A stretch of 64,000 nt of DNA, from the IMG/VR virus record IMGVR_UViG_3300030202_003282, positions 1 through 64,000 of that record. One strand, given 5' to 3'. A program made the translations under genes and the position numbers. Of the stretch, positions 17,801 through 35,604 are shown piece by piece. The notes below the pieces were generated by a model that ran no database searches, had not been told where the DNA came from, and saw only the letters and a list, made by a program, of their open reading frames with translations. Positions within the stretch are counted from its first letter, which is position 1, and each line of letters begins with the position of its first letter. Origin of the DNA: a virus.

Positions 17801-20800
17801 TGAGAAAAATACACCTGATCCACAAGAAAGATATGACGCAACACCAATTTTTGGTGGAGACAATTATGTAAATAGATTTACAGAAAAAGTCATTATGCCA
17901 ATATTTTCAAACTTTCAATATGATCAACCGGATGAAACACCATTTGATTACTTAAGATATCAAAATATTCCATTGCCAAGATATTGGATGGATACTCAAA
18001 AATATAATGTTAGTAAAGTATTAGAAACATTTACTCAATTTACAGCTACATTAACACCTGGATCTGTAACTAATGCTGGTTCTGATGCATTACCTGGCGG
18101 AATGTTTTATTTAGATAGACCAAGCAATAGTGATTATAATGCATGGGATGCTGTATTTGGTAATTTTGATGCTGATAGAATGCCAATATTTAACATGAAA
18201 AATACATATATGTATACTCATATTAATGGTATTTTAGATTTTTATGTTGAATCTGAAATTAATTTGGCACAAAGAGATTGGGAAGATAATAAATTTAAAA
18301 CTTATCATTATGATAAGGCACTTACTACAGACGTAGATAGTCTGTTTGATGCAGAATTTATTAGAGAAAGTAATTATTATAAATATGATTACTCATTAAG
18401 TGCTGCTAAATTTATAACTAATCTTAGTAGTTTTGGGACAGTACAACCAAGAGATTATGATCCATTAGTAGCAGAAAAATGTTTTCAATATTATCCTAAA
18501 AGATTAATATATTCATTACGAGCTCAACAAGAATCTAAAAAAGATTTTTGGAGAGTTTTTTTACCAGCTAATTATAAAGATTTTAAATCTATAGTTAATA
18601 CTATAAAACCTATAAATCAAACAGGAGCTATTATGTTATTTCCATATGAATCTCCTAAATTATTTAAAGGTGTAGATACTTTACAAACAAGTTTAGATAC
18701 TAAAATTATTATAGGTGATGGTGGATTATTTAATCAAGACCCACAAAACATAGTTAATTCAGATTTATCAAATGAATATGGTTCTTGTGAAAGTGCAAGA
18801 AGTGTTATAAATACACCATTGGGTGTTTTCTTTATATCTCAAGAACAAGGCAAAATATTTCAAACATCAGGTCAAGGTTTAGCACCTATTTCTGATGCAG
18901 GTATGAAATGGTGGTTTAATAAATATTTACCATGTCAATTATTAAAAGAAGTTCCAGAAATAGAAGGTAAACCTATTGTTGATAATCCAGTAATTGGTGT
19001 AGGTTGTCAAACAATTTTTGATCCAACAGATGGAATTGTATATTTCTGTAAAAGAGATTATGCTGTTGTAGAGGAATTTAGTGGTCATATACTATATGAT
19101 GAAGAAGATGGATTTCAATTAAATCTTACCACATATAGTGGTCAATCAGGAGTTCAAAGTTGTCCAGATGGTTATTCATTTAATAGTCAAACAGGAAAAT
19201 GTGAAAAAGCAACATACTCTATGCCAACATTAATAGGAGATAATCAATATGAATGTAATGAGGGAGAAACATTAATTCAAAATTCAGCAGGTCAATGGCT
19301 ATGTGAATTTTTAGATATAATAGATCCAATTATTGATCCCCGTACAATAAGCATTTCATTAGGTGATTCTACTTATTTTACAGATAGTTCATGGACAGTT
19401 AGTTATGATCCTAAAGTTAAAGCTTGGATTTCTTTTCATGATTGGCATCCTGAGTTATGCTTACCAAGCATTAATCATTTTTTAACAACAAAATCAGAAG
19501 ATTTAGAAATTAAATGTGATGAAGGATATACATATAATCCTGCAACAGGAGCATGCGAAAAAGGCACAACATTAGAAGAAGATAAAGATGCAGAAATAAT
19601 AATAGATGAAGTACCTACTGAAGGTGCAACAATAATAGGTTGTCCTGCAGGAGATTTAATATTTACTAAAGATGATGATATAGAAGCTTTAGTAGCAAAT
19701 TGGGATAGATGGTGTCAAACCGCATTTGCAGGAAGAAGAGTACCTGCAGGAGGTGGAACTGTTACATATAGTGATGTAGATCAAACCACTGGTATACCGT
19801 CCGGTGCACCAGGAACATATTTTGATCCTACAAGTTTCTATAATTTAGGAACTTTTAATGTTCCTATGCAAGAAGGTGATAACGTTACTGTAGCTGATGG
19901 TGCCCCTCAAGATGCAGCTAATGCAAATCAAGATTATTGGTGGTATAATTCAGCAATAAATAAATATCTTATTTCTATAAATGTTAGAGGTTTTTCTGCT
20001 ATTGACGCATGGCAATGGGTTACTTTTGATCCAACAGAAAATTCTGGAACTGAAGGAAATCCAACATCTGCAGAATATTTAAGTACAAATCAAACATGGA
20101 ATACAGAACCATTAGGTGGCACTGATTATACTATTGATTCACAAGGAAATGTGATATTAGCAAATATTAAAAATGCAGCATTTCCTAGAAAAGTTAGAAT
20201 GCTAACTAATAGTGGTCTTGTAAATGGATATTGGAGTAAATGTGAATTTGGTAATTATACACATGAAGTAACAGTTAGAAGTAGTAATAGTGATAATGAC
20301 TTTTTAGGTGTAGTGTTAGGAGCTGTTAAAGATATAGATAGTTTATATGGCCCAGAAAATGAAACACATAATTTAATTCTATTGTTTTCAAATGCTTCTG
20401 CAGGTCCTACAGGTAAAGGAACATTAAGTATATATTATAATTATCCAAATAGTGCTTACGGATTTTTAGATCCTGCAGATCCATCAGGAGCCAGAGGTTC
20501 ATTAGTTCATAGAGTAGATTCTCCATTTGATGGTGGTCCTCAAACAGGTCCTGGACAATATCAGACTCAAGGTTCTGTAAGAGTAAAAATAGTAAAAACA
20601 GGAAATGTTTTGGATATTTATCATACAGAGACAATGGGGTCACAATCAAATGCAGCAGTAGCTCCGGGAGGAGTTAATCAATATCCTACAACTCCACAAA
20701 TATCAATTGATTTAACTAATTCTTCAACATGGAATCAAGCTCCTGCATATGCTACAGGAAATGAATTATTAAAATTTCAAAATAATTGTAAAATAGGTTT

Positions 20801-21773
20801 CTTTTCTTTTTCACAGCCATCTTCATTCTTTTATGATATAGCTTTTGAAGGAGAAGTGCAAGGTAGACCTGGATGTGATTGTCCACAAGGATATACTAAA
20901 GTTTGGGAAAATCCTGCAACAGGTTATTATACTGAATCAACAGGATCTTGTCCGGGAGAAATTCCATTAATTTGCAGAAAAGTAGATTGTGATTGTCCTC
21001 CAGATCCATTTGCAAGTGGTGATCCAGGTACTCCTTCAGGATCTTGTGATGATTTATTTCAAGTTGGAGATCCTTCATATGTAAATCCATCACCAAGAAT
21101 TTGTACATATACAAAGGATGATTATGAAAGTTATTTTCCACCTAAATCTGCAGGAAGTATTTGGAGGCATAATGATAGATGTGATGATTTTGCAGGTTAC
21201 TATGGAGTAAGTTATCCTTGGGAAATAGAGTTTGTAGAAAATACTGGTCAAATGGTTAATACATTAAGAAGTATTGAATACCAATTAGAAAGCTTTGTTT
21301 ATAAAGGAGATTTAAGAAATGGTTGTGGAGATGATAGATACCATGATTTATTTTGGAATTTTGATGAAGCTGTAATATATAACACTGAGCAAGTATCTGG
21401 ATTATTAAAATTAAATCTTCAGCCGCAATTAGATCCAATTGGAGCATTAGATTATCCAATATTTAATGCAGCCGATATAGATATTATTTTTAATAAAGTG
21501 GAACAAAAATATAGATTTAATATGTTCTGGGATATTACTAATGATAGAGGTGAATTTTCTAATGCAGAACAGCAAATATGGAATACTCAATTAAACGGGT
21601 ATATAAAAGATTTAAATTTCTTAAATTTAGATTATAATAAACCTGCAGCACAACGTAAAAAGTTTAGACACTATTATAATAAACTTATTTTAAGACGTAG
21701 TACAGAAGGTGAAAGAAACAGAAAAATGCTATTGAAAGTAGCTAATACTAAACTTAATCAATCTTTTAGATAA
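14841..21773 (+). CDS. Giant tail hub/stabilisation (muzzle-type) protein with inserted adhesive modules (2310 aa)
   Basis: After a basic start, SFVKGMVKDPFPSFEDKQNW and IDGDLGVIGNEPSN match the start of the gp10-like tail stabilisation proteins of crAss-like and related phages, where KGM-x-KD and LGxxxNxxGN-like phrases recur. The core is beta-rich. Residues about 685-815 are a Gly/Ala-rich hydrophobic insert. ISFHDWHPEL near 1530 and the C-terminal block (WRHNDRCDDFAGYYG, NFDEAVIYNTEQVSGLL) look like conserved core. Between them lie cysteine-bounded units (CPDGYSFNSQTGKCEK, CDEGYTYNPATGACEK) and a LamG/ConA-like beta-sandwich at about 1793-2007. It is probably the tail barrel that closes the channel and touches the host surface. 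The stop overlaps the next ATG by one base. Confidence 0.7.
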   Translation: MAKRRKQKEQPPFESNKPKLGNTSSIESNSFVKGMVKDPFPSFEDKQNWTHARNAANNSIDGDLGVIGNEPSNLHCVNVTYTVIGAIHLYQDKWAIFSTDDDNSEIGLFDDSECTYEVLVNDECLNFNRLHLIKGAAKENYDCTWQLYWDDGNNPSRSMNINDIPWKQIVTSPIGADCVIYEDTTDLNCEKIRLAPLVDTPCIKISKGEDGGQLRNGSYQVFIAYTENEQKTTDYIGVSNIQSLWDHMDTACSLNIEISNLDKDFEYYEVVLLSIYAQQTQAKKIGLYSTETTKINIDYVDQALANVSLKLLPLQNPAYERSDDMFVVNDYLIRKGPREQFDFNYQPLANQITAHWVSAAYDADYYYKGGSKPTFLRDEQYAFFIRFIYNTGERSASYHIPGRPPRNATTFPQGVDQYNNVIDEIGIGTGPNQLSSTERNFEIFNTAVETSSGLLGPTDDGGMIIAKGDMAYWESTEKYPSTRPDIWDDLCGKHIRHHKFPTEETSNLVHLSSPGNTKIRLLGVEFKNVARPLFNDGTVIPNIVGFEFLRGTREGNKSILGKGIFRNMRKYVIPEGANNANTGMEGLYPNYPYNDLRSDPYFIQPNANFDNQSKGKDHYGNTFSSFPALDGYKQNVFTFHSPELSFRNPFLNAYETRMYGSVGGKSTGHWVKSEKHPQHKLLRNSGILVSAIFGIGYGLEKMRGRKKKVYDPVKALDIGLNGTFAAGTGYVIAPLTPGGSQVASGLTGIAQSAADIALSAFVDGLIDTIAFPLDIVSGGAATYFTMEAAQGASDVILGAMPGTTGGGSHFEIGGSELKEVPPLFYAISSVMQFLQQSSIGAQKIIDFIYELISVQDYALKYNSHGFYRQYFEGQSGSLFRTKNTASNYINNTFTSFAEGKYKINNLQRPKTVAIETLKNIPDPIQNDYSRIVLGQYGWDNGLLKPGKDRLTNISAHYGAIKFNQDNQYGQLEGVRQIQMRGCVELFPEKNTPDPQERYDATPIFGGDNYVNRFTEKVIMPIFSNFQYDQPDETPFDYLRYQNIPLPRYWMDTQKYNVSKVLETFTQFTATLTPGSVTNAGSDALPGGMFYLDRPSNSDYNAWDAVFGNFDADRMPIFNMKNTYMYTHINGILDFYVESEINLAQRDWEDNKFKTYHYDKALTTDVDSLFDAEFIRESNYYKYDYSLSAAKFITNLSSFGTVQPRDYDPLVAEKCFQYYPKRLIYSLRAQQESKKDFWRVFLPANYKDFKSIVNTIKPINQTGAIMLFPYESPKLFKGVDTLQTSLDTKIIIGDGGLFNQDPQNIVNSDLSNEYGSCESARSVINTPLGVFFISQEQGKIFQTSGQGLAPISDAGMKWWFNKYLPCQLLKEVPEIEGKPIVDNPVIGVGCQTIFDPTDGIVYFCKRDYAVVEEFSGHILYDEEDGFQLNLTTYSGQSGVQSCPDGYSFNSQTGKCEKATYSMPTLIGDNQYECNEGETLIQNSAGQWLCEFLDIIDPIIDPRTISISLGDSTYFTDSSWTVSYDPKVKAWISFHDWHPELCLPSINHFLTTKSEDLEIKCDEGYTYNPATGACEKGTTLEEDKDAEIIIDEVPTEGATIIGCPAGDLIFTKDDDIEALVANWDRWCQTAFAGRRVPAGGGTVTYSDVDQTTGIPSGAPGTYFDPTSFYNLGTFNVPMQEGDNVTVADGAPQDAANANQDYWWYNSAINKYLISINVRGFSAIDAWQWVTFDPTENSGTEGNPTSAEYLSTNQTWNTEPLGGTDYTIDSQGNVILANIKNAAFPRKVRMLTNSGLVNGYWSKCEFGNYTHEVTVRSSNSDNDFLGVVLGAVKDIDSLYGPENETHNLILLFSNASAGPTGKGTLSIYYNYPNSAYGFLDPADPSGARGSLVHRVDSPFDGGPQTGPGQYQTQGSVRVKIVKTGNVLDIYHTETMGSQSNAAVAPGGVNQYPTTPQISIDLTNSSTWNQAPAYATGNELLKFQNNCKIGFFSFSQPSSFFYDIAFEGEVQGRPGCDCPQGYTKVWENPATGYYTESTGSCPGEIPLICRKVDCDCPPDPFASGDPGTPSGSCDDLFQVGDPSYVNPSPRICTYTKDDYESYFPPKSAGSIWRHNDRCDDFAGYYGVSYPWEIEFVENTGQMVNTLRSIEYQLESFVYKGDLRNGCGDDRYHDLFWNFDEAVIYNTEQVSGLLKLNLQPQLDPIGALDYPIFNAADIDIIFNKVEQKYRFNMFWDITNDRGEFSNAEQQIWNTQLNGYIKDLNFLNLDYNKPAAQRKKFRHYYNKLILRRSTEGERNRKMLLKVANTKLNQSFR

Positions 21774-24700
21774 TGGGAAAAAGAATAGGATTAAAAGGAG
21801 GACCAAATTACATGGTCAAAGATCAACAAGGTCAATGGAAATACCCTGGTCAAAATACACGTATAGAAGGTAATGATGTTACAATGAAAGGTGTGCCATA
21901 TCCTGTATGGGCTCAACCAAATGTAGGACCACCAACATTAATGAATCCCGGTAAAGATTATTATTTTCCTAATGCAGACTATGTAGATGAATTTCCAATA
22001 CCCTCATATCAAACTAAAGGAGAAGTAAACAATGAACCTACTAGGGTAGAAACAGGTACGTACAATTATAACTTTGATAAGTCTCCTGCAGAAATGGAAG
22101 CAGAATTTTTTGCTAATGTTAATAGTTATGATGATCAAGGTAATCCTTTAGACAAAAGTGGAAATCCTATAACACATAGTAATTCTCAATACTTGCGTTA
22201 TATTGCTGCTCAAAATTTAAAAGATAAAAATACACAAGCAACTCAAGATAAAGAAAGTTATGTTCAAGAAAAAAGATTCCAAGAAGCTGCACCTAATTGG
22301 ATGGCAGATAAAGGTATAAATCCTAACACTGGCAAACCTTATACAGTAGAAGAATTTAGAGCATTAAATGAATCAGGGCAATTAAGAAATTATATTATAG
22401 GTGATAATGGAGAACGTATATTTGTAGGAAATAATCTTGATGAAGTTGAAATAGAACACGTTACTAAAGAAACACAGAAAGAAAGAGACAGAAAACAAAA
22501 TTCTTTTAATTGGCTAGAAAGAAAAGAAAAAGACGGATTCTTTGAAGATAAATATAAAGCATGGAATACTTTAAGTAACAGTACAAAAGAAACTTTAATA
22601 GAATTTCATAACCCATATAGTGGTTTTTATGGTAATTCTGCAAGACATAACCAAAACCCTATTTATAAGCAAGCTATATTAAAAGGTGTTAATGGAGAAG
22701 ATTATATGGATAATTATGGACAACAAATAACTGATGCCATAGTTAAACCAGGCATGGCTGTTGCAGCTCTTCCATTAATTGCATCTACATTACCTTATGT
22801 GGGAGCTGTAGGTAGTGAACTATATGGTGGTGTAGTAAGTCCACTTTTAAATACTAAAATAGCAGGAGATATAACTGTAGGAGGTGCAATGGATGCTTAT
22901 GGTTTATATCACGGAGCTACACATTTACCGGGGGATGTTCAAAAGATGTATAATGATCCAAGTTGGGGTAATGCATTAGATATAGGAATAGATGCATTAG
23001 GTATAGGTGCTGGTGCATATACAACAGGTAAACAAATTATACCAAGTATTAAAAAAGGATATAATACAGTTGCTACTGGAAACTCTCCGTTACCTATTGC
23101 ATGGAAATCTGGATTAAATGAAGGAAATATTAATGCAGCTTATCAAGGTTCTAAAAACTTTGATGCTTTAAAAGGTGCTAATTTAACTGATGATGAAGCA
23201 GCAATTGTCCGTCAATATTTACATAGTCCACAGAAAATGTCTGAAATAGATAGAGCTGCGTTTAATAAAATAGTTCAAGATAATAAGTTAACAGATCAAA
23301 TGATAAACAGTCCTGTATCTAGAATACAAAATTATCATATACCAGGGGATGATGTTCCAACTTCATGGGGAAGTAAATTTAATTTTGATAGACCTGTATC
23401 ATGGAGTGTTGGATCTAAATGGGATGGAGCAGGGTATAATGGTGTTGGCAATCAAAGAATAGTTATACCTGAAAAATATGCTAATCAACTAGGATCAGAG
23501 TTTTTTAAAGTACCTATTTCTGAAAATAAAAATTTACAACATTTAATAGAAAATACTAATGTTGGAAGTTTTAAAGATCCACGTTTTCAAAAAGTAAACC
23601 GTCTTTTAGATGAAAAAGAATTAATTGGAAATCCAAATTTTAAAGTTATTGGTACAGATAATACAGGACACTTTAATGATATTATTGTAAAACCAATTAA
23701 AACAAATAAAACTAAAACTAATTGGACAAAACCTACTAAAGATTATTTAAAAAAGGAGTATGATATAGAAATACGCAAAAAAGGATTAACTGATTTAATC
23801 AGTGAAGAAGAATTTATTACACAAGGTTTAAATGCTCCTGTACAAAGTATTAATAATACATCATCTATACGTAACCGTACTTTTAATAAAACTAGAGAAG
23901 AAATTATTAATCAATCACAAAATTATAAATCATGGCCAGAATTTAGAAATGAAGGAACAATAGATGATATTTATACAGGTTTTAAAAAAGGCAATCCAAT
24001 GAAACCTATAATATTAATGGATCAAGGTACAGACGGTACTAGAATAATTTCTGGAAATACTAGATTAAATGTTGCTGAACAATTAAATAAATCTCCTTTT
24101 GCTATAACTCTTAAAGGCAATAAGCCTAAAGGTGTAAGTGATCTTATTACAGACAAATCAGATGAATTTGGAGATATTGTTGAAGTTCTTACAGCAGATG
24201 GTAGTAAAAAATTAATGAGTAAAAAAGATGCATTAAAATTTTCAAGAATAGAAGATGCTAATTTAAATCAAAATCTTATAAATAAATCAAATGAATATGA
24301 AATGGGTAACTGGTTTAATATAGGTTTAGATGATGCTAGCAGTCAAATGTATTATTTAAGAAATACTAAAGATGCTTTAAAAGGTCCCGGTAATTCATTA
24401 ACCCCAGAAGCTAATAGAAGACTTATAAGTGGTTTTATAGATCCTGCAGATGCAGAAATGCTTAATGTTGCAAATAGTACTGAAAGAGCTAAAACTCTTA
24501 GTGGGGGTATTGATAATACACCATTATCAAATGAATATATTTTTCCACCTACTTTAGTAGAAAAAATGAGAAAAGGTGTAGGTTCTGGATATACAACAAC
24601 AACTGGTGATTTTAAGACAATATTAAAAAATTTATCTGATTTTGAAAATCTTAAAAATGGTGGACAATTACCAAAAGCACAAAACGGTAAAGAGCCTATT

Positions 24701-27700
24701 AGAGTAAAAGATGCATTAGATCCAAGATATATAGAATATATGGATAGGCTAGCTCTATCTAAAAAATTTACAGGAGATGAAGGTTTTGTAAAAGATCCTA
24801 ATTCTAATTTTTTTATAAAAAATGATATTAAATATGAAATAACGGATCAAGCAGGTATTGATGAAGCTATAGAATATTCAAAAAATCAACCTCAATGGTG
24901 GTTTGATGAAGCAGCTCATAAAAAAGATAAAGCTGCTGGAAATGCAAAGTCTTTAAATGATTATGTACAGGATAAAGGTTCTCAATATGCACATTTTGGA
25001 AGAAATAGATATGGCTATTCAGATAAGATACATCCTTCTATAAAACCTACGGATACAACACTCTATAGAGCTGTAGAACCAAACGAAATGTATGTATACA
25101 AAACAACTAAGGGAAAAAATAAAAAAGATTTTACCACAATGCAATGGCCTAATCATCATGTTTATAAATATGCAGCTCCTGAAAGAGAAGTGATAATTGA
25201 TCCAGAATATATACCTGAAGGATATTCATATAAAGTAGATAATAGTAGAGATGGGGATGTAAATGATTACTTCAAAGAAAATAAAAGAATTACTAGAGAA
25301 GACTGGATAAAAGCTACTGAATATAATCCTGCAAAACATAAACAAATACAAAGAGAAGAAGAAAGACGTGTAGAGATTCCTGAGTTTGTATACGGAGGAC
25401 AATTACCAAAAGCTCAAGATGGAAAGTTTATAAAAAACGCATCTGAAATATTATCTAAAGCAGTTCCACCTGCACCAGCAACAACAAAAGCAATGGAGGA
25501 AATGAAACTCATTCAAAGAATGATAGAACAAAGAGATAATACTATACCTCAAGAAATGCTGGTAAGACAAGCTTTTAAAGAATCTACATTTAATCCAGAT
25601 GCAGTTTCTTCAGCAGGTTATAAAGGAATGAGTCAATTAGGAGATGCTGTTATTAGTGATTATAAAAATGCTACAGGGGCAACAGAAATTGATCCTTTTG
25701 ATCCTGAAGATGCCGCTAAAGTACAAAAGTGGTATATGGATAATTTATATAATTCTAGTTTTGTAAATAAACCCAATCAATCTGCTGTAGTAAGAAAGGC
25801 AAAAGCATTTGGTGCTTATAATTGGGGAAGGGGTAATATGGCTGACTTTTTAAATGAGCAAAAGGAAAAAGGTGTAGATATATATAGTGATGATATGAAA
25901 TGGTTAGAATCATTACCAACAGAAACTAAAGATTACATTAACAAGATAGTTTTAGAAAATAATGAAAAGTTTGAAAAAGAATATTTAGATTCTAAACATG
26001 ATAGTATTAACAAAACATATTATAATTCATTATTTGAATTTCCAAAAAGACAATTTGGAGGAGAAGAAAAATCAGATAGTGTATATGTTTCACAAGGTGA
26101 AATAGGACCTAGAATAGCTTCTAAATTTGGAATTACAATACAAGAATTATTAGATGCTAATCCTGGAATTAATCCAATGATGATTGCTAAAGGTACTTCA
26201 ATAAATATTCCTGGAATGGGATCATCAATTCAACAACCAATTGTTGAAGAGGTAGTAACACCAGTTGCACAACCTGTTGTAACACCATCTGTTCAGCCTG
26301 CAGCACCTGTTGTAACACCTGTTGTAACACCGCCTGTACAACAAACTGTACAAAAACCTATTGTAAAAAGTAAACCACAACCTGTTGTAAATACCCAAAA
26401 TAAAATCACTTCAGTAAATACACCAATAGAACCTGTAATTACTCAACAACAAAATAAACCTGTAAATCCAAAAGCAATAATAAAAGCAGGAACAATAGGA
26501 CCAGTAGAAACAAATGAAATAGAAACAAATGAAGCAACATCAGTAATAAAAGGTGGGCTAACGGCAGGTTCAGGAAAACTTTTACCTGAAATAGATTTTA
26601 CACAATATGAATATAAAGCATTTCCATCAAGTACTGGTGTAGTTGCAGCATCTGCACCCACAGAACTATATAATCCATTTGCATCTGTTTATGATTCAAA
26701 TCCAGTAACAGGAGATAATACAACAGTTTTTATAAATGACAGTTTAACTTTAGGAGAGCAACATAATGCATATAATCCTAATAAATTGGAATCTGATCAT
26801 AAAAAAGAACAAGGCTGGTTTGAAAAGATGGGACATTGGTATGATGATAAGATGGATAATTTACATAGAGGTTGGGTACAACATATGGATGGTGATGTTT
26901 ATAATACAGAAGAAGTTAATGTTAACATTGATCTTGAAGAAGAACCAGAAGGATTTGGAGTACTTAAATCTAGTACAAACAAAGGAGGTGTTGATGGAAT
27001 ATCAGGAGCAGCAGCTTCAACAGTATCAGCAGCAATTGAAGAAACTAAACCGACTACTACAGTAGATAATATAAAACCTGTATTTAAAAATTTAGGAACT
27101 GTTAATGATAGTAAAGGAAAATTAATGATGTTTCAAAATTCATTTAATGCAAAAAAAGGTTTTAATTATGTTCCTATAATGAATTATGGTAAATCAACAA
27201 ATAGTACTCAATATGATAATGTTAAAGGAATTGCACATTTTTTATTAGATTCTGATTTAACAGATGGATATAAACATGAGTATGCTTCAAATATGATTAA
27301 AAATCAATTAGATGGAATTTCTGTAGCACCAGGATCAACCGTAAAAGATGGTTATTATCCTATATATGAAAAGTTAGATAATGGTCAAGTTAATATAAAA
27401 TATTTAAAAAAAGATGAAATAAAAGATTATACTTCTATTGCTTCACCATTACGTCAATATAGATGGTCTGATTTAGATTGGGAAGGTAAAACAACAGCTC
27501 AAGGATTTAAAACAACAGTATCATCAATACCTACTGTTAAAAGTTATACTGCAAATGGAAAAAAATCTAATTCAACTCACTTAATATTTCCTACAAGTAA
27601 AGATAGAGGGGGTAAAGGAGCATACGGTAGATTTGGTGGAACAGGTGTTATTTTCTTTATAGAAAAACCCAATGGTCAAAGAGAAGCTATAGAAATGGCT

Positions 27701-28129
27701 GGTTCAATTAATATGATAAAAGAAACAGCTAATGAAATAATGAAAAAATATAAATTAAAACCTGAACAACTTATATTTGGATATCATGATGTAGGAAGTT
27801 TTAGTGCAAGACCTCAAGCTAAAAATGGTAAATTAAACTTTAATCAATGGAGTGGATTTAATCAAGCTAGCAATCCACACGTTGGTGGTGCATTAGCATT
27901 TCCTCTTGTTAGTGGAAATAATGTAGAGTTAAAATTTGGAGGTCAAATAAACAAAAATGAAGTTTATAAGAACTACATTAAAGGTAAATATGATAATACT
28001 GATAAGTTAGCTTTTGGTAAAGAGGTTTATGATAAACTTAATAGACTGCATTATAAAGATGCTAAAAAATTAGGAATGCATATTCCTAATTATGTAATGA
28101 CGCACGTTGTTGGAAAAGGTAATAAGTAA
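21773..28129 (+). CDS. Giant virion protein with lytic transglycosylase, LysM and ParB-like domains (2118 aa)
   Basis: Order of parts: a disordered N-terminus; a hydrophobic Gly/Ala-rich region at about 320-435; a ParB/sulfiredoxin-like segment at about 720-800 (KPIILMDQG, SGNTRLNVAEQL); a soluble lytic transglycosylase (SLT) domain at about 1250-1370 with probable catalytic E1270 in FKESTFNPDAVSSAGYKGMS; a LysM domain at about 1436-1482 (IASKFGITIQELLDANPGIN); a Pro/Val/Thr linker; and an unrecognised C-terminal domain. SLT cleaves peptidoglycan glycan strands, so the protein probably opens the cell wall during DNA entry. Short sites (PSYQTKGEV, GGQLPKAQNGK, GGQLPKAQDGK, RQFGGEE, KFGGQ) separate the domains and may be processing sites. 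The gene is coupled to the upstream one through TAATG. Confidence 0.8.
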   Translation: MGKRIGLKGGPNYMVKDQQGQWKYPGQNTRIEGNDVTMKGVPYPVWAQPNVGPPTLMNPGKDYYFPNADYVDEFPIPSYQTKGEVNNEPTRVETGTYNYNFDKSPAEMEAEFFANVNSYDDQGNPLDKSGNPITHSNSQYLRYIAAQNLKDKNTQATQDKESYVQEKRFQEAAPNWMADKGINPNTGKPYTVEEFRALNESGQLRNYIIGDNGERIFVGNNLDEVEIEHVTKETQKERDRKQNSFNWLERKEKDGFFEDKYKAWNTLSNSTKETLIEFHNPYSGFYGNSARHNQNPIYKQAILKGVNGEDYMDNYGQQITDAIVKPGMAVAALPLIASTLPYVGAVGSELYGGVVSPLLNTKIAGDITVGGAMDAYGLYHGATHLPGDVQKMYNDPSWGNALDIGIDALGIGAGAYTTGKQIIPSIKKGYNTVATGNSPLPIAWKSGLNEGNINAAYQGSKNFDALKGANLTDDEAAIVRQYLHSPQKMSEIDRAAFNKIVQDNKLTDQMINSPVSRIQNYHIPGDDVPTSWGSKFNFDRPVSWSVGSKWDGAGYNGVGNQRIVIPEKYANQLGSEFFKVPISENKNLQHLIENTNVGSFKDPRFQKVNRLLDEKELIGNPNFKVIGTDNTGHFNDIIVKPIKTNKTKTNWTKPTKDYLKKEYDIEIRKKGLTDLISEEEFITQGLNAPVQSINNTSSIRNRTFNKTREEIINQSQNYKSWPEFRNEGTIDDIYTGFKKGNPMKPIILMDQGTDGTRIISGNTRLNVAEQLNKSPFAITLKGNKPKGVSDLITDKSDEFGDIVEVLTADGSKKLMSKKDALKFSRIEDANLNQNLINKSNEYEMGNWFNIGLDDASSQMYYLRNTKDALKGPGNSLTPEANRRLISGFIDPADAEMLNVANSTERAKTLSGGIDNTPLSNEYIFPPTLVEKMRKGVGSGYTTTTGDFKTILKNLSDFENLKNGGQLPKAQNGKEPIRVKDALDPRYIEYMDRLALSKKFTGDEGFVKDPNSNFFIKNDIKYEITDQAGIDEAIEYSKNQPQWWFDEAAHKKDKAAGNAKSLNDYVQDKGSQYAHFGRNRYGYSDKIHPSIKPTDTTLYRAVEPNEMYVYKTTKGKNKKDFTTMQWPNHHVYKYAAPEREVIIDPEYIPEGYSYKVDNSRDGDVNDYFKENKRITREDWIKATEYNPAKHKQIQREEERRVEIPEFVYGGQLPKAQDGKFIKNASEILSKAVPPAPATTKAMEEMKLIQRMIEQRDNTIPQEMLVRQAFKESTFNPDAVSSAGYKGMSQLGDAVISDYKNATGATEIDPFDPEDAAKVQKWYMDNLYNSSFVNKPNQSAVVRKAKAFGAYNWGRGNMADFLNEQKEKGVDIYSDDMKWLESLPTETKDYINKIVLENNEKFEKEYLDSKHDSINKTYYNSLFEFPKRQFGGEEKSDSVYVSQGEIGPRIASKFGITIQELLDANPGINPMMIAKGTSINIPGMGSSIQQPIVEEVVTPVAQPVVTPSVQPAAPVVTPVVTPPVQQTVQKPIVKSKPQPVVNTQNKITSVNTPIEPVITQQQNKPVNPKAIIKAGTIGPVETNEIETNEATSVIKGGLTAGSGKLLPEIDFTQYEYKAFPSSTGVVAASAPTELYNPFASVYDSNPVTGDNTTVFINDSLTLGEQHNAYNPNKLESDHKKEQGWFEKMGHWYDDKMDNLHRGWVQHMDGDVYNTEEVNVNIDLEEEPEGFGVLKSSTNKGGVDGISGAAASTVSAAIEETKPTTTVDNIKPVFKNLGTVNDSKGKLMMFQNSFNAKKGFNYVPIMNYGKSTNSTQYDNVKGIAHFLLDSDLTDGYKHEYASNMIKNQLDGISVAPGSTVKDGYYPIYEKLDNGQVNIKYLKKDEIKDYTSIASPLRQYRWSDLDWEGKTTAQGFKTTVSSIPTVKSYTANGKKSNSTHLIFPTSKDRGGKGAYGRFGGTGVIFFIEKPNGQREAIEMAGSINMIKETANEIMKKYKLKPEQLIFGYHDVGSFSARPQAKNGKLNFNQWSGFNQASNPHVGGALAFPLVSGNNVELKFGGQINKNEVYKNYIKGKYDNTDKLAFGKEVYDKLNRLHYKDAKKLGMHIPNYVMTHVVGKGNK

Positions 28130-28136
28130 TAATTTA

Positions 28137-28164
28137 GGCAATCTGCATAAATATTTGTATATTA
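28137..28164 (+). promoter_or_regulatory. Extended promoter-like element before the giant cargo genes
   Basis: GGCAATC (28137-28143) and TTTGTATATTA (28154-28164) repeat the arrangement at 10821-10847. The ATG follows 10 bases later, so a transcript from here would have a very short leader. Confidence 0.5.
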
Positions 28165-28174
28165 ATATAGTATA

Positions 28175-31100
28175 ATGGATACAATGGAAACTAAAAAATA
28201 TCAACAGGGAGGAGAAGCAAATATGCCTTCTTCAACAGAATTGCAACAAGAAATTTCAAAGCAATTAAAAGAAGGTGTTAAACCTATTGAAATAATTGCT
28301 GCATTATTACAAGCTCAAATTCCAGAACAAGAAATAGTAATTGCTTTTGAACGTTTAGGAATACCTGAAAATCAGACAGTTAATATGATTGGTGAAGTTT
28401 CTGCTCAATCAGAAAGCCAACCATCTCCAGAAGAAATGTCTATGATGGAGCAACAACAAATGCCCATTGATCCAAATAGCATGCCTGAAGGAATGATGCC
28501 TCCACAAGCACCAATGGCAGAACAAGAAGCACCAGCAACTCCAGAACAAATAGCTCAATTAGAACAACAATTACCTCAAGCACAATTTGGTGTTGAAAAT
28601 TTTAACATCCCTGGAGTAAATACAACTGGCAATGAATGGATGGGTCAAGGTCATCATTTTAGTAGACCAAAAAATCAATCTAATAATTTTGGTTATGCAG
28701 GGCGTGTAGATTCAGAAGGAAATCCAAGAGAACTTTTAAGTCAAGATATTATTGATAGATTTCAATCTAATAGACAAGAAACTGATCCATATGTAGTTCC
28801 TGAATATGAAACAATTAGAGAACTTCCAGAATTTGGCATAAAAGATAAACTTAAAAATTTTATAGGTAATTTATCTAATAAAAGATCTAATAAAAAAAAT
28901 AAAAATTATGCTCCTCCTATGTTTAGAAGCTATGCTGCTTATGGTGGAGATACTGAATTTATACCTAAAGCACAAAACGGAAATTTTATTCCTCCGCATC
29001 AAAGAGGTATTGGACAAGGTGGTGGTTCATTGTATTTACCAGATTATGGTACAGATCAACAAACTGAAAGTGACATTTTAAATTTACCTAAAATGCCAAG
29101 ACCATTGTATAATAATGTAATGATGCATCAAAATCCATTGGCTAATCTTGTTACATCTATAGCTGATTTTGGACAAACCATGTTTAGCAAAGAAGATAAT
29201 GACGGTGATGGTCATTCTGACGGCATTTTTAGAAGAGATACAAAAGAACAAAAAAGTGCTCCAGGTTATAGAACACGAAAACAAGAATGGAGAGATAATA
29301 AAGGAGCTTACCAAAAACATAGAATAAATGCAGGATTAAATGCAGATGGAACTCCAAGAAGTGAAGCTGACTTTAAAGAGAATTATGTATTTGATCAAAC
29401 AAATAGAGAGGTTCTTAGTAAAGACCAAATGAAACAAAGATTTATTGATAATTCAAGTGTATCTTTTGATGAGAAAAAAGGTAGATATAAGCTATATGCT
29501 GCTGACAACAAAAAAGATCATAGAAGAAATATTAGAAAGCAAGATGCAACAGATTTTCAAGAGTTTAGTCAAAGAATAAAAGATAATCCTGATCAAGCAA
29601 ATATGCTTTATGATTATTATGGTCAAACAGAAAAACAAACTGGAATACCAAAAGGAACAACATTTGGTGTAGATGAAGATGGATATGGTACATCTTATGC
29701 ACCAAATACAGTTAATCCAGATTTTTATGAAACAGCAATGTATGAAAATCTCCTTAAAAAATCACATGGAGGTGAAAATCTTATGGATCATGATTCTATG
29801 CAAAAAGATTTACAAAAAGCAGGTCCTGAATTTTTACAAGCGTTTATGCAAGTTGTTGATCAAGGTATGCCTATGCAACCACAAGTAATGTCTGAGAATC
29901 AAGGTATGCCATCATACCAATACAGAGGTGAAATAAATCTTAATTTACCAAAACTTACTAATGCAGAAAAAATAGGATTGGGAACAGGAGCATTATTAGG
30001 ATTTGGTTCAAGCTTTATAAATCCTAAGTCTAGTATAAGCAAAAATGCTAATGTTAAAAATACTGCACAACAAATGTGTACAGATAATACATGTCCTGCT
30101 GGTTCAAATGATTGGAAAGATTATACTAACCGTGCAAATATGCAATTAGGATATGGAGAAGATCCAAATAGACCTGGTTATTTTAGCACAGATGAATATG
30201 CTACAGGAAATGTAGGAAAGGCTGCTTTAAACACCTTTGGTAGAACTGCATTAGGTGCAGGAACGGGATGGTTAGCAGGATATGGTAGTCAATGGTTAGG
30301 AAATAAAATAGCTCCAAGAGTATTTGGAAAACCGGGACCACTTTTTAGACAAGATGGTGGAGGATTACCTTCATTTCAATCTCAGGGTGAAGTTTTAGAT
30401 GAGTTGGAAATAGTAGCAGAAGGAGAACCTAGAATACAACCAAGACCGCAAAAACTAGTTGAAATTAACTCACCATTTCCCGAACTTAGATTGCCTGACT
30501 CAGATCAATCTATATTTAACCCAAATAACCCTAGTAGTATTTTTTATAATCCTGCAAGTGAAGAAGAAATAGAAGAAACAGCAACTGAAAATTCAATGAT
30601 TGGACCAACAAATAATAATGTTGGACCTATTAATAATAGCAATTTAACAAATGATTCAACTCAACTTACTGCTAATATTTTAGATAATCAATCTAATCCA
30701 AACACTAATTTTAATCAAGTTGCTAATATGGGCAATAAACAAAATAGTAGAAATAATGTATTGAGTATGCCTCCACTTGAAGATGATGATTTACCTATAA
30801 GCACAATTGATTATGATGGAGATGGCGTAAATGATTTATACCCAAAAGCTCCAATAGCAAATGACCCTCCTGGAGATGATCCAGAAGAAGATTTATCTGT
30901 AGATCCATTTGTAGAAAAATCAACTTATGGTGATAGTCCTGGACAAAAAGTAAGAAATTGGACAAACCGTCAACTTGATAGACCCGGTGTACAAAAGTTT
31001 GGTAAATTTTCTGAAGGTGTTGTTAATGTTGCAGATGCAGGTACAGATTTTATAAGATATGGTAAATTTCTTAATGAAAAGAATGATAAAATGCGTACAC

Positions 31101-31321
31101 AAGCTGATAAAACATATGGAATGGTTGCAGCTTCAGATAGAGGAGATCAAGATGAAAACACTGGATATTTTATTGATAATAAAGTAGTTCAAATGGGTGG
31201 AGATCCATTTAATAATTTACAACAAATGCTACCCCCTACCCCAACCACAGGAGAAGCAGATGTAAATTATAATACATTATTAAAACTAATAGCAGCAGGT
31301 GCTGACATTGAAATTTTATAG
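28175..31321 (+). CDS. Large virion/cargo protein with recurrent PxxQxxG sites (1048 aa)
   Basis: Not recognised as a named family. It starts with KKYQQGGEAN, then a helical segment and an M/P/Q-rich low-complexity stretch (about 85-130) ending at LPQAQFGVEN. Further sites are YGGDTEFIPKAQNGN (near 256-269), MPSYQYRGEI (near 577) and LPSFQSQGEV (near 730). Two acidic loops resemble thrombospondin-type-3 calcium loops: DNDGDGHSD (29195-29221) and DYDGDGVND (30809-30835). A Gly/Ala-rich hydrophobic segment (GLGTGALLGFGSSF) and GRTALGAGTGWLAGYGSQWL suggest membrane contact. By position and composition it is an internal virion protein ejected with the genome. The gene ends with TAG, two bases before the next ATG. 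Confidence 0.55.
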   Translation: MDTMETKKYQQGGEANMPSSTELQQEISKQLKEGVKPIEIIAALLQAQIPEQEIVIAFERLGIPENQTVNMIGEVSAQSESQPSPEEMSMMEQQQMPIDPNSMPEGMMPPQAPMAEQEAPATPEQIAQLEQQLPQAQFGVENFNIPGVNTTGNEWMGQGHHFSRPKNQSNNFGYAGRVDSEGNPRELLSQDIIDRFQSNRQETDPYVVPEYETIRELPEFGIKDKLKNFIGNLSNKRSNKKNKNYAPPMFRSYAAYGGDTEFIPKAQNGNFIPPHQRGIGQGGGSLYLPDYGTDQQTESDILNLPKMPRPLYNNVMMHQNPLANLVTSIADFGQTMFSKEDNDGDGHSDGIFRRDTKEQKSAPGYRTRKQEWRDNKGAYQKHRINAGLNADGTPRSEADFKENYVFDQTNREVLSKDQMKQRFIDNSSVSFDEKKGRYKLYAADNKKDHRRNIRKQDATDFQEFSQRIKDNPDQANMLYDYYGQTEKQTGIPKGTTFGVDEDGYGTSYAPNTVNPDFYETAMYENLLKKSHGGENLMDHDSMQKDLQKAGPEFLQAFMQVVDQGMPMQPQVMSENQGMPSYQYRGEINLNLPKLTNAEKIGLGTGALLGFGSSFINPKSSISKNANVKNTAQQMCTDNTCPAGSNDWKDYTNRANMQLGYGEDPNRPGYFSTDEYATGNVGKAALNTFGRTALGAGTGWLAGYGSQWLGNKIAPRVFGKPGPLFRQDGGGLPSFQSQGEVLDELEIVAEGEPRIQPRPQKLVEINSPFPELRLPDSDQSIFNPNNPSSIFYNPASEEEIEETATENSMIGPTNNNVGPINNSNLTNDSTQLTANILDNQSNPNTNFNQVANMGNKQNSRNNVLSMPPLEDDDLPISTIDYDGDGVNDLYPKAPIANDPPGDDPEEDLSVDPFVEKSTYGDSPGQKVRNWTNRQLDRPGVQKFGKFSEGVVNVADAGTDFIRYGKFLNEKNDKMRTQADKTYGMVAASDRGDQDENTGYFIDNKVVQMGGDPFNNLQQMLPPTPTTGEADVNYNTLLKLIAAGADIEIL

Positions 31322-31323
31322 AT

Positions 31324-34300
31324 ATGGCAAAAATTAAAATAAATAACTTACCTGAAGGTTTTATATTAGAAAACGGTAAAGTAGTAGAACAAAAAAAAGA
31401 CGGTGGAAGTTTAACTACTGGAGATCAATTTGATTGGGGTCTTGTTACAGTTCCTACTAATGCTGCGTATGGTGTAGAAATGAATGATTCTGATTCAACT
31501 GATGTAAGATATAGTTTATCATCTGTTCCTAAAGATGAAGCTAATATAGAAGCTGAAGGTGGTGAAACTGTTTTAACTGATTTGAATAATGATGGTATGT
31601 TTGGTCTATATGATATTGTAGGACCTAGACATGGTAGTGGTGGAGTACCAATGTTTTTACCAGAACAATCTTTTGTATTTTCAGATACAAGTAAGATGAA
31701 ATTTAATAAATCAGAAATGTCTGAGTTTGGTATTGACTCTAAAAAGAAACAAACGCCTGCAAAAATATCTAAGAAATTTGAATTAAATAAATATTATAAA
31801 GATGTTGTAGATCCTTATACAGATAGTATTGGCTTACGTAGTGCAGAATTAATGTTAGATAAAAATAAAAGAAGCTTATCTAAACTTGCATTTGGACAAG
31901 AAGCTAAAAAAGATTGGGAAGATGGAGTTCCTTTAGCTGCTCATCCTTATATAGTAGAGCAGGGAATGGATCCTATAGAATTTACTGCTAAAGTAGAAGA
32001 GTTGAGTATGCAACAAGCTCAAAATAGAGTATTACAACAATTACCTCCAGAACAAAGAGAACAAGTTGCAATGATTGAACAAATGTTGCAACAACAAGCA
32101 ATGCAACAACAAGCTGCAACTAATCAAGATCCTTCACAACAACCTGAACAAATGGGAATGCCACCTATGGAAGGAATGCAGGAAATGGCTCCTATGCCAC
32201 AAGAAGAAATGCCTCCGCAGCAAATGATGCCACCTATGGATCAAGGAGCTATGCCTCCTCCAATGCCAATGGCTCAATATGGATATGAACTACCTGAATT
32301 TCAACTTAGGGGGGAAATGGCTGGTCCTTTAGCTACTGAACAACCTATACCTTCAGCAGAAGGAATTGATTTAATAGATAATATACAACCATATATTGAT
32401 GGGGCAGCATCAATGGGATTAACTGCAATAGTAGTAGATGCAAGAGGTCAACAAATAGATCCAAACAATGCAGGAGATGGAATGTATGAAATTAAATTTG
32501 TAGATCAATATGGAAATGCTCAACAGTTTGGAAATCAACCGCCTATGTTATTTGGAATCCAACAAGGACAAATGATGATGAGTGATCCTTCTTTAAGACA
32601 AGCTACTTCTAATGATATAGCTGGTATGATACAAAGTAATGTATTTAGTCAAGAAGATTTAGCGGATATACAAAATACAATGGAAATTCAAGATAGCGTA
32701 GATCCAATGGAACAACCTATTATTGAAAATTTAGATCCAGTTGCTCAAACTGAAGGTGCTCCATTAATGTCAGCAATTAATCCAGTTTCAGGTGAAGAAA
32801 TGCAATTATCACAAAATTTAATGAATCTTGCAGATACGGATGTAAATGTAGATCCATTAACTGCTCAAATTTTAGATCAAACTGATATTACTACTGAAGA
32901 AACAATAGAGACAGTTGAAGAACCAGAATCAGATGCATATTCTAATTCTGCAGTATCAGATGTACAAAGAACAAATCTTAATAATGCTGTTAAGTTGGAT
33001 AACTTTGCAGAGGTACAAAAAGTATTAGAAGCAAATATAGGAAAAGTAGGAGATGATGGTAAAGCTGCAGGAACACCACAAGCTGCAGGAACATTTGCAT
33101 TATTTGATGGAGAAGGTGAGTTAGAAGGTCAAGAACCTATGAGAAGTGGTTATCCAAAAGTGGGAGTACAATCTTTATTTCCTGAATTAAAAACCAATCC
33201 AAATTTAATGGGTACTGCTAATGGGGAATTAATGAGAATGTTTAATGTAAACAGTCGTTTTGATCCTAGAGTAGCTGCTGGTATTGCACAAGGTTTAATA
33301 CCTTCTGAAGATAGAAAAAAATATTGGTTAGATAAAACTGATCCAGATTATTTAGATATTAATGATGTAAAAGGAATTAATCTAGCTGAAATTGATCCAG
33401 GTAGATTATTAGAAGAAGTTACTGATATTTATAAAGGTACGTACAGTGATGCATATCCAATTGATTCAGCTACTGGTATGTCAACAAACTATCCTGTATG
33501 GCAAGAAAGAATTAAATTTTTATCAGAAAGACATGGGTTAGATTATCCTGAAGGATTTACAGAAAAAGGGGATTTTAGAACGCAAACTATAAGAGAAGTA
33601 GATGATCAAGGAAATGTTACATTTAGTTCAACTAAACCAAAAAATACATCAGATAAAGTCTTTACATATGATAAAGGATCTGTTAGTAAATATGACGCAT
33701 ATGATCCTGATGAATATAATGGTGCACAAATTATTACTAATTTAGATAATCAAGAATTAATTGAAGAAGAAAACATTGAAAGTGCAGATGATGTTATTTC
33801 TAAAATAGAAGAGACAACTGAAGAGCTTAAAGAAGAAACAGATCCTGAAGTTAAACAAAAATTATGGGAAGAGCTTAATAATTATAAAAAGCTTGAAAAA
33901 GTATTTGCTAGTGAAAATAAACAATGGACTAACTATTTAGATAAAGCATATGCCGGATATAAATATATAATAGGTAGTGAAGACTTAAATCCAAAAAGTG
34001 CTGAACTAACAAATCCTGAAGATTTTCAAAAAAATGTATTGATGGGTAATGCCATTAATTTATCATTAAAAGATTTAAAAAATCAAGATAGTGATTTAGG
34101 AAGAAAAGTTAAAGCTGCTTTAGAAAATCCATCTGATGCTAAGTATTGGCAAAATCTTCTTGAAGATCCTGATATTCAAAAATATTTAGAAGAAGAAACC
34201 GGTGTAAATGGAGCAGAAGCACTAGCTTGGGCAAGCAATAAAGACAATGTAATGCAATTCCAAGCAGGAATGCAGGGATTCAGAAAAGCTGATGCTGAAG

Positions 34301-35604
34301 ATGAAACTGGAATGGAATTTTTAGGCAGTGAGTTTGCTGGTACCCAAGGAGGCAATGAAAAAGTTTATGATTCAGATTCATATCATCCATCTAAAATAGA
34401 TGGTATTGTAGGAGATCATACAGCAACTAGCGTATTGTTGGCTAATCAATTACCTGAAGAACCAGAACCAGAAATAGAAATAGAGCCGTGTGGAGCATGT
34501 CCTGATGGAACTGTTCCTGAAAGATTGGATGATGGTACTTGCCCTTGTGAAGAACCAACACCAGAAAAGAAAAAGAAAAAAGGATGTCCATGTAGTGATG
34601 GATCAGTATCTTATTTATGTTGTGCAAAAGCACCGGAAGCAAGATGGGAACCTTGGTTACAAGATGAAATACTTCTCAATACAAATCCTAGAAGGGATAT
34701 GTTTATGCCTTGGCAACCTGATCCTGAAAGAATAGATTTAGATTATGTTTTAGATGATCCAACAACACAAATTGCAGCAAACAATGCAGCAAAAGCTATA
34801 AGTGATCAAGCAGCAGGAGCATTTGGTGGCCGTCAAGGATTGGCAGCATTTACTGGTAAATCAGCTGGAGAAGCAATGGATGGTAATGCTAAAGCTTTAC
34901 AAAGGGTACAAACAAATAATGTAAATATTAAAAATAAATATTTTAGAGATCAAGCTCAATTAGATGCAGGTATTAATTTAGAGAGAAGAAACAGAAATGT
35001 AAAATATGTTGATGATGTTAACAGAACTCTTCAAAATTATCAGAATGAAAGAAATGCAGATGATTGGAACTATGCTCAAAAATTAGCTAACTATTACACA
35101 AATGCTGGTAAAACACAAGCAAGAAATAGTCAAGAACCTTATTTTCACATGATGCCTGGAGAAGGTGGTACAGTTAGGCAAGTAGGATACCGTAGTATGA
35201 CTGGAGATAAACCTACATCTGATAAAGGTGCATGGCAAGAAAATTATAAAACTGCTTATGCAGATTTACAACAAATAGCTGGACCTGATGGTAAAGTAAC
35301 TAATAAAATGATTACTGATTACATGAGAGGAGCACCTGCACCAACTAAAGCAAATACAAATAATCAAGGTTATCCAGGTAATAATAATTATTATAATTAT
35401 AATACTCATCCTAATATGATGTATAGTGGATATGGACCTACAGGATTTAATCAAGGATATCCAGGAGGGATGCCTGGTGGAAATATTAGAGGGCAAAGAC
35501 AACCAATATATAATAATGCAGGTCAAATAGTTGGTTATGCAAAAAAAGGAAAAGAGTTAAAAAAGTGGGCTAGACCTTTTTATACAGGAAAAATGGGAGT
35601 ATAA
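31324..35604 (+). CDS. Giant virion/cargo protein (1426 aa)
   Basis: The N-terminal domain (about 1-200) contains KKDGGSLTTGDQFDWG and an EF-hand-like loop, DLNNDGMFGLYD (31579-31614), followed by GPRHGSGGVPMFLPEQSFVF, which looks like a conserved fold of this protein class. Residues about 220-320 are Gln/Met/Pro-rich and end at LPEFQLRGEM. A cysteine cluster follows at about 1055-1105 (CGACPDG, CPCEEP, GCPCSDG, LCC). The C-terminal third is a long polar helix (INLERRNRNVKYVDDVNRTL) like internal virion proteins of crAss-like phages. The Asn/Tyr/Gly-rich end is probably disordered. The function is inferred from neighbours only. Confidence 0.55.
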   Translation: MAKIKINNLPEGFILENGKVVEQKKDGGSLTTGDQFDWGLVTVPTNAAYGVEMNDSDSTDVRYSLSSVPKDEANIEAEGGETVLTDLNNDGMFGLYDIVGPRHGSGGVPMFLPEQSFVFSDTSKMKFNKSEMSEFGIDSKKKQTPAKISKKFELNKYYKDVVDPYTDSIGLRSAELMLDKNKRSLSKLAFGQEAKKDWEDGVPLAAHPYIVEQGMDPIEFTAKVEELSMQQAQNRVLQQLPPEQREQVAMIEQMLQQQAMQQQAATNQDPSQQPEQMGMPPMEGMQEMAPMPQEEMPPQQMMPPMDQGAMPPPMPMAQYGYELPEFQLRGEMAGPLATEQPIPSAEGIDLIDNIQPYIDGAASMGLTAIVVDARGQQIDPNNAGDGMYEIKFVDQYGNAQQFGNQPPMLFGIQQGQMMMSDPSLRQATSNDIAGMIQSNVFSQEDLADIQNTMEIQDSVDPMEQPIIENLDPVAQTEGAPLMSAINPVSGEEMQLSQNLMNLADTDVNVDPLTAQILDQTDITTEETIETVEEPESDAYSNSAVSDVQRTNLNNAVKLDNFAEVQKVLEANIGKVGDDGKAAGTPQAAGTFALFDGEGELEGQEPMRSGYPKVGVQSLFPELKTNPNLMGTANGELMRMFNVNSRFDPRVAAGIAQGLIPSEDRKKYWLDKTDPDYLDINDVKGINLAEIDPGRLLEEVTDIYKGTYSDAYPIDSATGMSTNYPVWQERIKFLSERHGLDYPEGFTEKGDFRTQTIREVDDQGNVTFSSTKPKNTSDKVFTYDKGSVSKYDAYDPDEYNGAQIITNLDNQELIEEENIESADDVISKIEETTEELKEETDPEVKQKLWEELNNYKKLEKVFASENKQWTNYLDKAYAGYKYIIGSEDLNPKSAELTNPEDFQKNVLMGNAINLSLKDLKNQDSDLGRKVKAALENPSDAKYWQNLLEDPDIQKYLEEETGVNGAEALAWASNKDNVMQFQAGMQGFRKADAEDETGMEFLGSEFAGTQGGNEKVYDSDSYHPSKIDGIVGDHTATSVLLANQLPEEPEPEIEIEPCGACPDGTVPERLDDGTCPCEEPTPEKKKKKGCPCSDGSVSYLCCAKAPEARWEPWLQDEILLNTNPRRDMFMPWQPDPERIDLDYVLDDPTTQIAANNAAKAISDQAAGAFGGRQGLAAFTGKSAGEAMDGNAKALQRVQTNNVNIKNKYFRDQAQLDAGINLERRNRNVKYVDDVNRTLQNYQNERNADDWNYAQKLANYYTNAGKTQARNSQEPYFHMMPGEGGTVRQVGYRSMTGDKPTSDKGAWQENYKTAYADLQQIAGPDGKVTNKMITDYMRGAPAPTKANTNNQGYPGNNNYYNYNTHPNMMYSGYGPTGFNQGYPGGMPGGNIRGQRQPIYNNAGQIVGYAKKGKELKKWARPFYTGKMGV

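What the first reader, a model, noticed from the sequence alone, without database searches (positions are those of the whole stretch)
21995..32319. Recurrent [LIM]-P-x-[AFY]-Q-x(1,2)-G motif at apparent domain borders in three consecutive giant proteins
Seen directly: IPSYQTKGE (21995), LPKAQNGK (within 24656-24691), LPKAQDGK (25388-25426), LPQAQFGVE (28571 on), IPKAQNGN (28961), MPSYQYRGE (29906), LPSFQSQGE (30365), LPEFQLRGE (32290). Eight copies lie in the genes at 21773, 28175 and 31324, and I found none in the next three giant genes. They sit between otherwise unrelated segments, for example right before the transglycosylase domain and right after M/P/Q-rich linkers. Such repetition across paralogous-looking linkers in non-homologous proteins suggests a functional short motif: a virion maturation cleavage site, a packaging signal or a docking site for a common partner.
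Basis: partly seen in the sequence, partly recalled or inferred. Interest (0 to 1): 0.85.

Follow-up and report, generated by a model that had tools for sequence, protein, structure and literature searches.

The report
Seam motif in ejected phage proteins
A short protein 'word' (LPKAQ-x-G) marks the joints between swappable domains in the proteins that a family of aquatic crAss-like viruses probably injects into bacteria, and it is probably read by one common partner, either a protease that cuts there or a surface that binds it.

Summary
The window belongs to a 116.8-kb crAss-like phage. Its three genes after the muzzle-like gene hold nine regex copies (dipeptide shuffles: 0.09); the other 15,160 aa tested in the window hold none. 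Window plus 78 related loci give 139 copies (shuffled 9, reversed 6); none lies in a protein assigned to another window gene family. The profile is [YK]GGxxLPKAQxGGE; a second spelling, LPx[YF]QxxGE, keeps E at the same distance from Q. Codon use is ordinary, so the constraint is on the protein. The 380 sites fall into at least 108 unrelated contexts. They sit at seams of a polymorphic, 'polyvalent' protein (SLT, LysM, YkuD, amidase, ART, SET, HExxH modules) and after the conserved N-terminal modules of the first and third genes; where modelled, they lie in predicted disordered linkers. Cultured Cellulophaga phages phi4:1 and phi17:2 carry a weaker version in homologous proteins annotated as found by MS/MS in phi4:1 virions. 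Sequence cannot separate cleavage from docking. I put processing slightly ahead (0.40 against 0.35): no prohead protease was recognised, but an HExxH region lies in the RNA-polymerase giant. Neither role has been tested experimentally.

The parts
14841..21773 (+). muzzle-like tail protein gene (2310 aa); anchor used to collect 78 related loci; contains no motif
   Evidence: (phrog_37948, phrog_15100)
21773..28129 (+). polymorphic multi-module cargo protein (2118 aa): conserved N-module, variable middle, conserved C-module
21773..21997 (+). conserved N-terminal module (aa 1-75), ends just before the first motif; aa 1-83 match 91 proteins in the fetched loci
21998..22024 (+). motif IPSYQTKGE (aromatic form)
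24668..24688 (+). motif LPKAQNG (preceded by NGGQ)
25403..25423 (+). motif LPKAQDG (preceded by YGGQ), in a low-confidence linker before SLT
25532..25873 (+). SLT transglycosylase domain
   Evidence: (PF01464, E 4e-12)
26039..26068 (+). variant motif FPKRQFGGEE in the low-confidence linker between SLT and a LysM-like domain
27950..28126 (+). conserved C-terminal module (YDKLNRLHYKDAKKLGM...)
28175..31321 (+). second motif-bearing protein (1048 aa)
28571..28591 (+). motif LPQAQFG after the Q/M/P-rich N-terminal region
28961..28981 (+). motif IPKAQNG
29906..29932 (+). motif MPSYQYRGE (aromatic form)
30365..30391 (+). motif LPSFQSQGE (aromatic form)
31324..35604 (+). third motif-bearing protein (1426 aa); third gene after the muzzle-like gene; only a short weak match to FpV20 gp31, none detected to crAss001 cargo protein C1
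31525..32121 (+). folded N-terminal domain (aa 68-266), no solved relative found
32263..32316 (+). tandem motifs MPMAQYGYE + LPEFQLRGE, positionally conserved after a Q/M-rich linker, predicted disordered
39287..55621 (+). 5444-aa giant: crAss001 gp47-like part with HEAFH (45971-45985) and gp50-like RNA polymerase part with DFDID (51797-51811); no regex copies of the motif; candidate source of a trans-acting protease

Best explanation
Shown: the motif is a fixed-length, protein-level signal, [LIM]-P-x-A-Q-x-G-x-E or [LIM]-P-x-[YF]-Q-x-x-G-E, often preceded by [YK]GG. It sits at the seams of swappable modules and directly after conserved N-terminal modules in the probable cargo (ejected) proteins of a crAss-like phage lineage. 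Inferred: one common factor reads it in trans. I commit, narrowly, to proteolytic processing. On this model the conserved N- and C-terminal modules address the chain to the particle; a protease that comes with the particle, or is met in the host, then cuts at the disordered seams and frees wall-degrading and effector domains so that each can refold and act alone. The best phage-coded candidate for the cutter is the HExxH (zincin-like) region of the 5444-aa RNA-polymerase giant encoded downstream. That assignment is a guess.
For: Enrichment confined to cargo genes: 679 profile hits in 197,846 aa against 33 in 419,518 aa of other proteins. Homologous segments end at the motif: 16-19% of breakpoints within 10 aa against 6% for random positions. 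At least 108 unrelated contexts; site pairs sharing only the upstream (1547) or only the downstream flank (232) outnumber pairs sharing both (207). Propeptide-like layout: the N-module is followed by the motif in 35 of 41 distinct proteins, with 0.06 expected per window, and the third-gene N-domain in 31 of 34. Both AF2-tested regions place the motif in linkers with pLDDT below 50 beside domains at about 90 or more. Middle modules are wall enzymes, ADP-ribosyltransferases, SET and HExxH domains, the make-up for which processing was proposed by Iyer et al. (PMC5512222). Codon use at the sites is ordinary. A homologous HExxH region occurs in crAss001 gp47, a protein found in virions by mass spectrometry (PMC10172136).
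Against: No protease is shown to recognise it. No prohead protease was found among the scanned virion proteins, although the genome-wide Pfam list was cut at 25 of 61 families. The motif is longer than the three-residue sites of T4 or SPN3US. A tandem pair 9 residues apart (32263/32290) is odd for cutting but natural for binding. crAss001 has the HExxH region without the motif. Of 51 motif-bearing proteins over 1000 aa, 33 have no HExxH themselves, including the window's. The residue after Q varies freely, unlike sites cut after Q by 3C-like enzymes. In crAss001, peptides and ordered segments suggest C1 spans tail and capsid as one chain.
Confidence: 0.4

Rival explanations
1. Docking or cargo-loading motif: each copy binds one common virion surface (portal, ring proteins, muzzle lumen or scaffold), so several copies along a long cargo chain hold it in place for packaging and ordered ejection.
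For: Fixed length with covariation between the residue before Q and the place of G suits a binding groove. Several copies per protein, rising with length (Spearman 0.45), and a tandem pair. The motif is also in small stand-alone proteins, some with it 7-26 residues from the N-terminus, in related phages. crAss001 C1 has a chain docked inside portal and tail barrel in 12 copies, and its barrel-bound segment (214-245) starts at a YGGPLEFG stretch at 208-215, a weak resemblance only.
Against: No partner identified. crAss001, phi14:2 and FpV20 are related phages with muzzle-type tails, yet the proteins scanned there have no full copy of the motif. Placement at seams of catalytic modules is not needed for docking.
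Confidence: 0.35
2. Passive seam: a flexible, easily unfolded linker kept because module swapping happens by recombination within it, with no reader protein.
For: Breakpoints cluster at the motif, and Gly and Pro suit a linker.
Against: Codon choice at the sites matches genome use, apart from Leu (TTA-rich, no CTT), so there is little sign of a DNA-level joint. A plain linker would not need L-P-K-A-Q, E at a fixed distance, or the two covarying spellings. The motif also occurs where there is no sign of swapping: the positionally conserved site of the third protein and small proteins.
Confidence: 0.15
3. Classical prohead-protease maturation site, as in T4 (LxE/IxE) or SPN3US (AxE), with cleavage after the motif's Glu.
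For: G-x-E and xGE endings look similar, and long N-terminal propeptides are normal in SPN3US (PMC10052503).
Against: Glu is present in only about half of the profile sites. No motif in the capsid, portal, terminase or candidate scaffold gene. No prohead protease recognised.
Confidence: 0.05

Closest known systems
Polyvalent proteins of phages and conjugative elements (Iyer et al. 2017, PMC5512222)
   Same: Large proteins combining wall enzymes, ADP-ribosyltransferases, HExxH peptidases and other unrelated domains, thought to be delivered with the DNA; processing proposed there
   Different: I found no inter-module motif described there (no 'LPKAQ' or 'linker' in the text); here one spelled motif marks the seams across hundreds of sites
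Prohead-protease cleavage sites of SPN3US and T4 (PMC10052503)
   Same: Short motif in internal head proteins that are ejected; N-terminal propeptides of similar length
   Different: The SPN3US motif is three residues with Glu at P1 and also acts on the portal and major capsid proteins; here neither holds, and no protease is identified
Capsid-targeting sequences of T4 IPIII and P1 DarB (PMC9024508)
   Same: N-terminal stretches that send internal or large antirestriction proteins into the head
   Different: Those are N-terminal; this motif recurs inside the chain
crAss001 cargo protein C1, gp45 (PMC10172136)
   Same: Gene directly after the muzzle, cargo to be ejected, segments held in portal and tail barrel
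   Different: No copy of the motif above threshold; sequence homology with the 31324 protein not detected

Membership tests
Crassvirales (crAss-like phage) | crAss-type capsid, portal, terminase and ring proteins | tested here: met
   PF23898 E 7e-25 and phrog_6681/phrog_6547; CrAss_Ring_1 and CrAss_Ring_2. No phylogeny was built
Polyvalent proteins | Several biochemically unrelated domains in one polypeptide | tested here: met
   Met for the gene family; the window protein itself gives only SLT by Pfam, plus a LysM-like segment
Polyvalent proteins | Carried in the virion and injected | tested here: inconclusive
   Homologous phi4:1 gp040/gp041 are annotated as found by MS/MS proteomics; injection not shown
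Polyvalent proteins | Embedded zincin-like peptidase (common, not universal) | tested here: inconclusive
   HExxH in 19 of 53 relatives but not in the window protein
Prohead-protease substrates | Same motif in capsid or portal proteins and a prohead protease in the genome | tested here: not met
Prohead-protease substrates | Cleavage seen in mature virions | not testable with these tools
   needs mass spectrometry
Capsid-targeting sequence | Sufficient to bring a foreign protein into the capsid | not testable with these tools
   needs a fusion experiment
DNA element (recombination or packaging site) | Nucleotide conservation beyond what the protein needs | tested here: not met
   codon choice at 31 distinct LPKAQxG sites follows genome use except for Leu

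The most novel reading that the evidence does not exclude
A transferable seam code: a 9-residue signal delimits the modules of a phage-delivered effector array and is cut by one dedicated protease, so that effector domains can be swapped freely by recombination and released one by one in the host.
Probability: 0.3. Interest if true: 0.9.

Novelty: new variant of a known kind. Interest (0 to 1): 0.66.

Why it matters
Processing of polyvalent proteins has been proposed but not located. This gives spelled candidate sites in many genomes, a shared grammar for module swapping, and cultured host-phage pairs (Cellulophaga baltica with phi4:1 or phi17:2) in which cutting and docking can be told apart by mass spectrometry. 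It would also give a simple way to find module borders in crAss-like cargo proteins, which resist annotation.

Tried and rejected
DNA-level element: codon test negative. Fold relatives of the third-gene N-domain: none in the PDB or viral structure libraries, no significant profile match to solved structures. Profile link of 31324 and 35667 to crAss001 gp45/gp46 and phi14:2 counterparts: not significant; only a short weak match to FpV20 gp31. Host from bacterial genome contigs: two contigs in metagenome bins of unrelated groups, uninformative. Embedded zincin as the obligate cutter in cis: most motif-bearing large proteins lack HExxH. A tblastn search of isolated phages with the whole 21773 protein found only domain-level hits; the conserved N-module, as a consensus, then found phi17:2 and phi4:1. 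The wide DNA-pattern scan returned some hits in apparently unrelated phages (L106, L156, L160, L165, L087), probably chance, not counted as independent support. Literature searches found no description of the motif, but that library is open-access only.

Full report
What it is part of. The window is part of a 116,753-nt virus record. Terminase, portal, capsid and ring proteins match crAss-like families. After the muzzle-like gene (14841-21773) come three genes that carry the motif (21773, 28175, 31324). Then follow a 1198-aa protein, a 5444-aa giant and a 1961-aa protein. The giant combines a crAss001 gp47-like part with an HEAFH sequence and a gp50-like RNA-polymerase part with DFDID.

Observation. 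All eight copies are real, with one coordinate off by a codon. A ninth copy (32263) and a variant (26039) were missed. Nine regex copies compare with 0.088 in dipeptide shuffles, and the other tested window proteins hold none. The rest of the genome holds none.

Family-wide test. Seventy-eight loci with a related muzzle-like gene give 139 copies, the window's included. Composition shuffles give 9.0 and reversed proteins give 6. No protein assigned to any other window gene family has one. An iterated profile finds 679 hits in 197,846 aa of the cargo block and 33 in 419,518 aa of other proteins; reversed cargo proteins give 33. The profile was trained on the cargo block, so the regex counts are the fairer statistic.

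Grammar. Around Q there are two spellings: A followed by Q-x-G (256 sites, 7 exceptions) and Y or F followed by Q-x-x-G (31 sites, 7 exceptions). In both, Glu tends to lie four residues after Q. Collapsing sites linked by flank homology leaves at least 108 contexts, and the association holds there (Fisher p = 5e-13). Codons at 31 distinct LPKAQxG sites follow genome use except that Leu is TTA-rich. The constraint is therefore on the protein.

Place in the proteins. The first gene is polymorphic, about 540 to 2629 aa among complete copies, with a conserved N-module and C-module. Between them lie LysM, SLT, YkuD, peptidoglycan-binding, amidase, lysozyme, SET and ADP-ribosyltransferase domains and HExxH sequences in 19 of 53 proteins. 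Ends of homologous segments cluster at the motif; this statistic is inflated somewhat because the motif itself aligns. The N-module is followed by the motif in 35 of 41 distinct proteins and the third-gene N-domain in 31 of 34. In the alignment of the third protein the motif is a conserved island in an otherwise unalignable stretch. AlphaFold2 puts the motif in low-confidence linkers beside confident domains; low confidence suggests disorder but does not prove exposure.

Reach. The crAss001, phi14:2 and FpV20 proteins that were scanned have no full copy of the motif (FpV20's 4419-aa giant has two low-scoring profile hits). The cultured Cellulophaga phages phi17:2 and phi4:1 have a homologous N-module joined to a third-gene-like domain, with VPNFQAGG at the module end. 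All five [AFY]Q.GG copies in 20,065 aa of phi17:2 structural proteins lie in this protein and its neighbour; shuffles give 0.08 for those two proteins. The neighbour has two HExxH sequences with AQAGGE between them. phi4:1 has the same sites, and its record annotates both proteins from MS/MS proteomics.

Mechanism. The strict spelling, the many unrelated contexts and the seam positions argue for a reader protein. Processing is favoured slightly by the module content, by the propeptide-like layout and by the proposal of Iyer et al. that polyvalent proteins are processed. Docking is favoured by the fixed-length covariation, the tandem copy and the presence of the motif in small proteins. A resemblance to the stretch before the barrel-bound part of crAss001 C1 is only a lead. 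T4-like maturation cleavage is disfavoured. My estimates are 0.40 processing, 0.35 docking, 0.15 passive seam, 0.05 classical maturation site, the rest unknown.

Limits. Loci from metagenomes are related and partly redundant. Gene calls are mechanical. The peptidase search was incomplete because the genome-wide family list was cut. That the three window proteins are in the virion and ejected is inferred from gene order, domains and homologues. No experiment bears directly on cutting or binding.

Noticed in passing
window 39287-55621: The 5444-aa giant appears to fuse relatives of crAss001 gp47 (HExxH region, E 2.6e-8) and gp50 (RNA polymerase, E 1.9e-10), which are separate genes in crAss001.
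   Followed up: partly
L158 and L181 (minus strand, about 5.5-7.1 kb and 8.9-10.5 kb): Several small adjacent proteins end in a shared C-terminal tag such as GGAVGPNGVL, GSGSNGVL or AVGPNKIL; possibly a packaging tag.
   Followed up: no
L003, L004, L013, L023, L036, L037, L050 and others, first gene after the muzzle: A cysteine-rich, zinc-finger-like module (CGWSWKAADGGxDVxTCHKCGG) lies directly before LPKAQ in many proteins.
   Followed up: no
L205:40150-42369 (phi17:2 gp042) and L210:6752-8971 (phi4:1 gp041): A structural protein annotated as a tail protein with two HExxH modules separated by YAQAGGE.
   Followed up: partly
window 31324-35604, aa 68-266: A highly conserved folded domain (EAEGGETVLTDL...GPRHxxGGVPMFLPEQSFxFSD) with no solved or viral structural relative found.
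   Followed up: partly
L080:16436-17599; DUF2201 gene elsewhere in the same genome: A non-virion protein with an HExxH sequence, and a putative metallopeptidase/VWA pair of families (DUF2201_N, DUF2201) somewhere in the genome.
   Followed up: no
L208, L209: Relatives of the third protein sit in contigs binned with Campylobacteraceae and Pseudomonadales metagenome genomes, most likely misbinned phage contigs.
   Followed up: no
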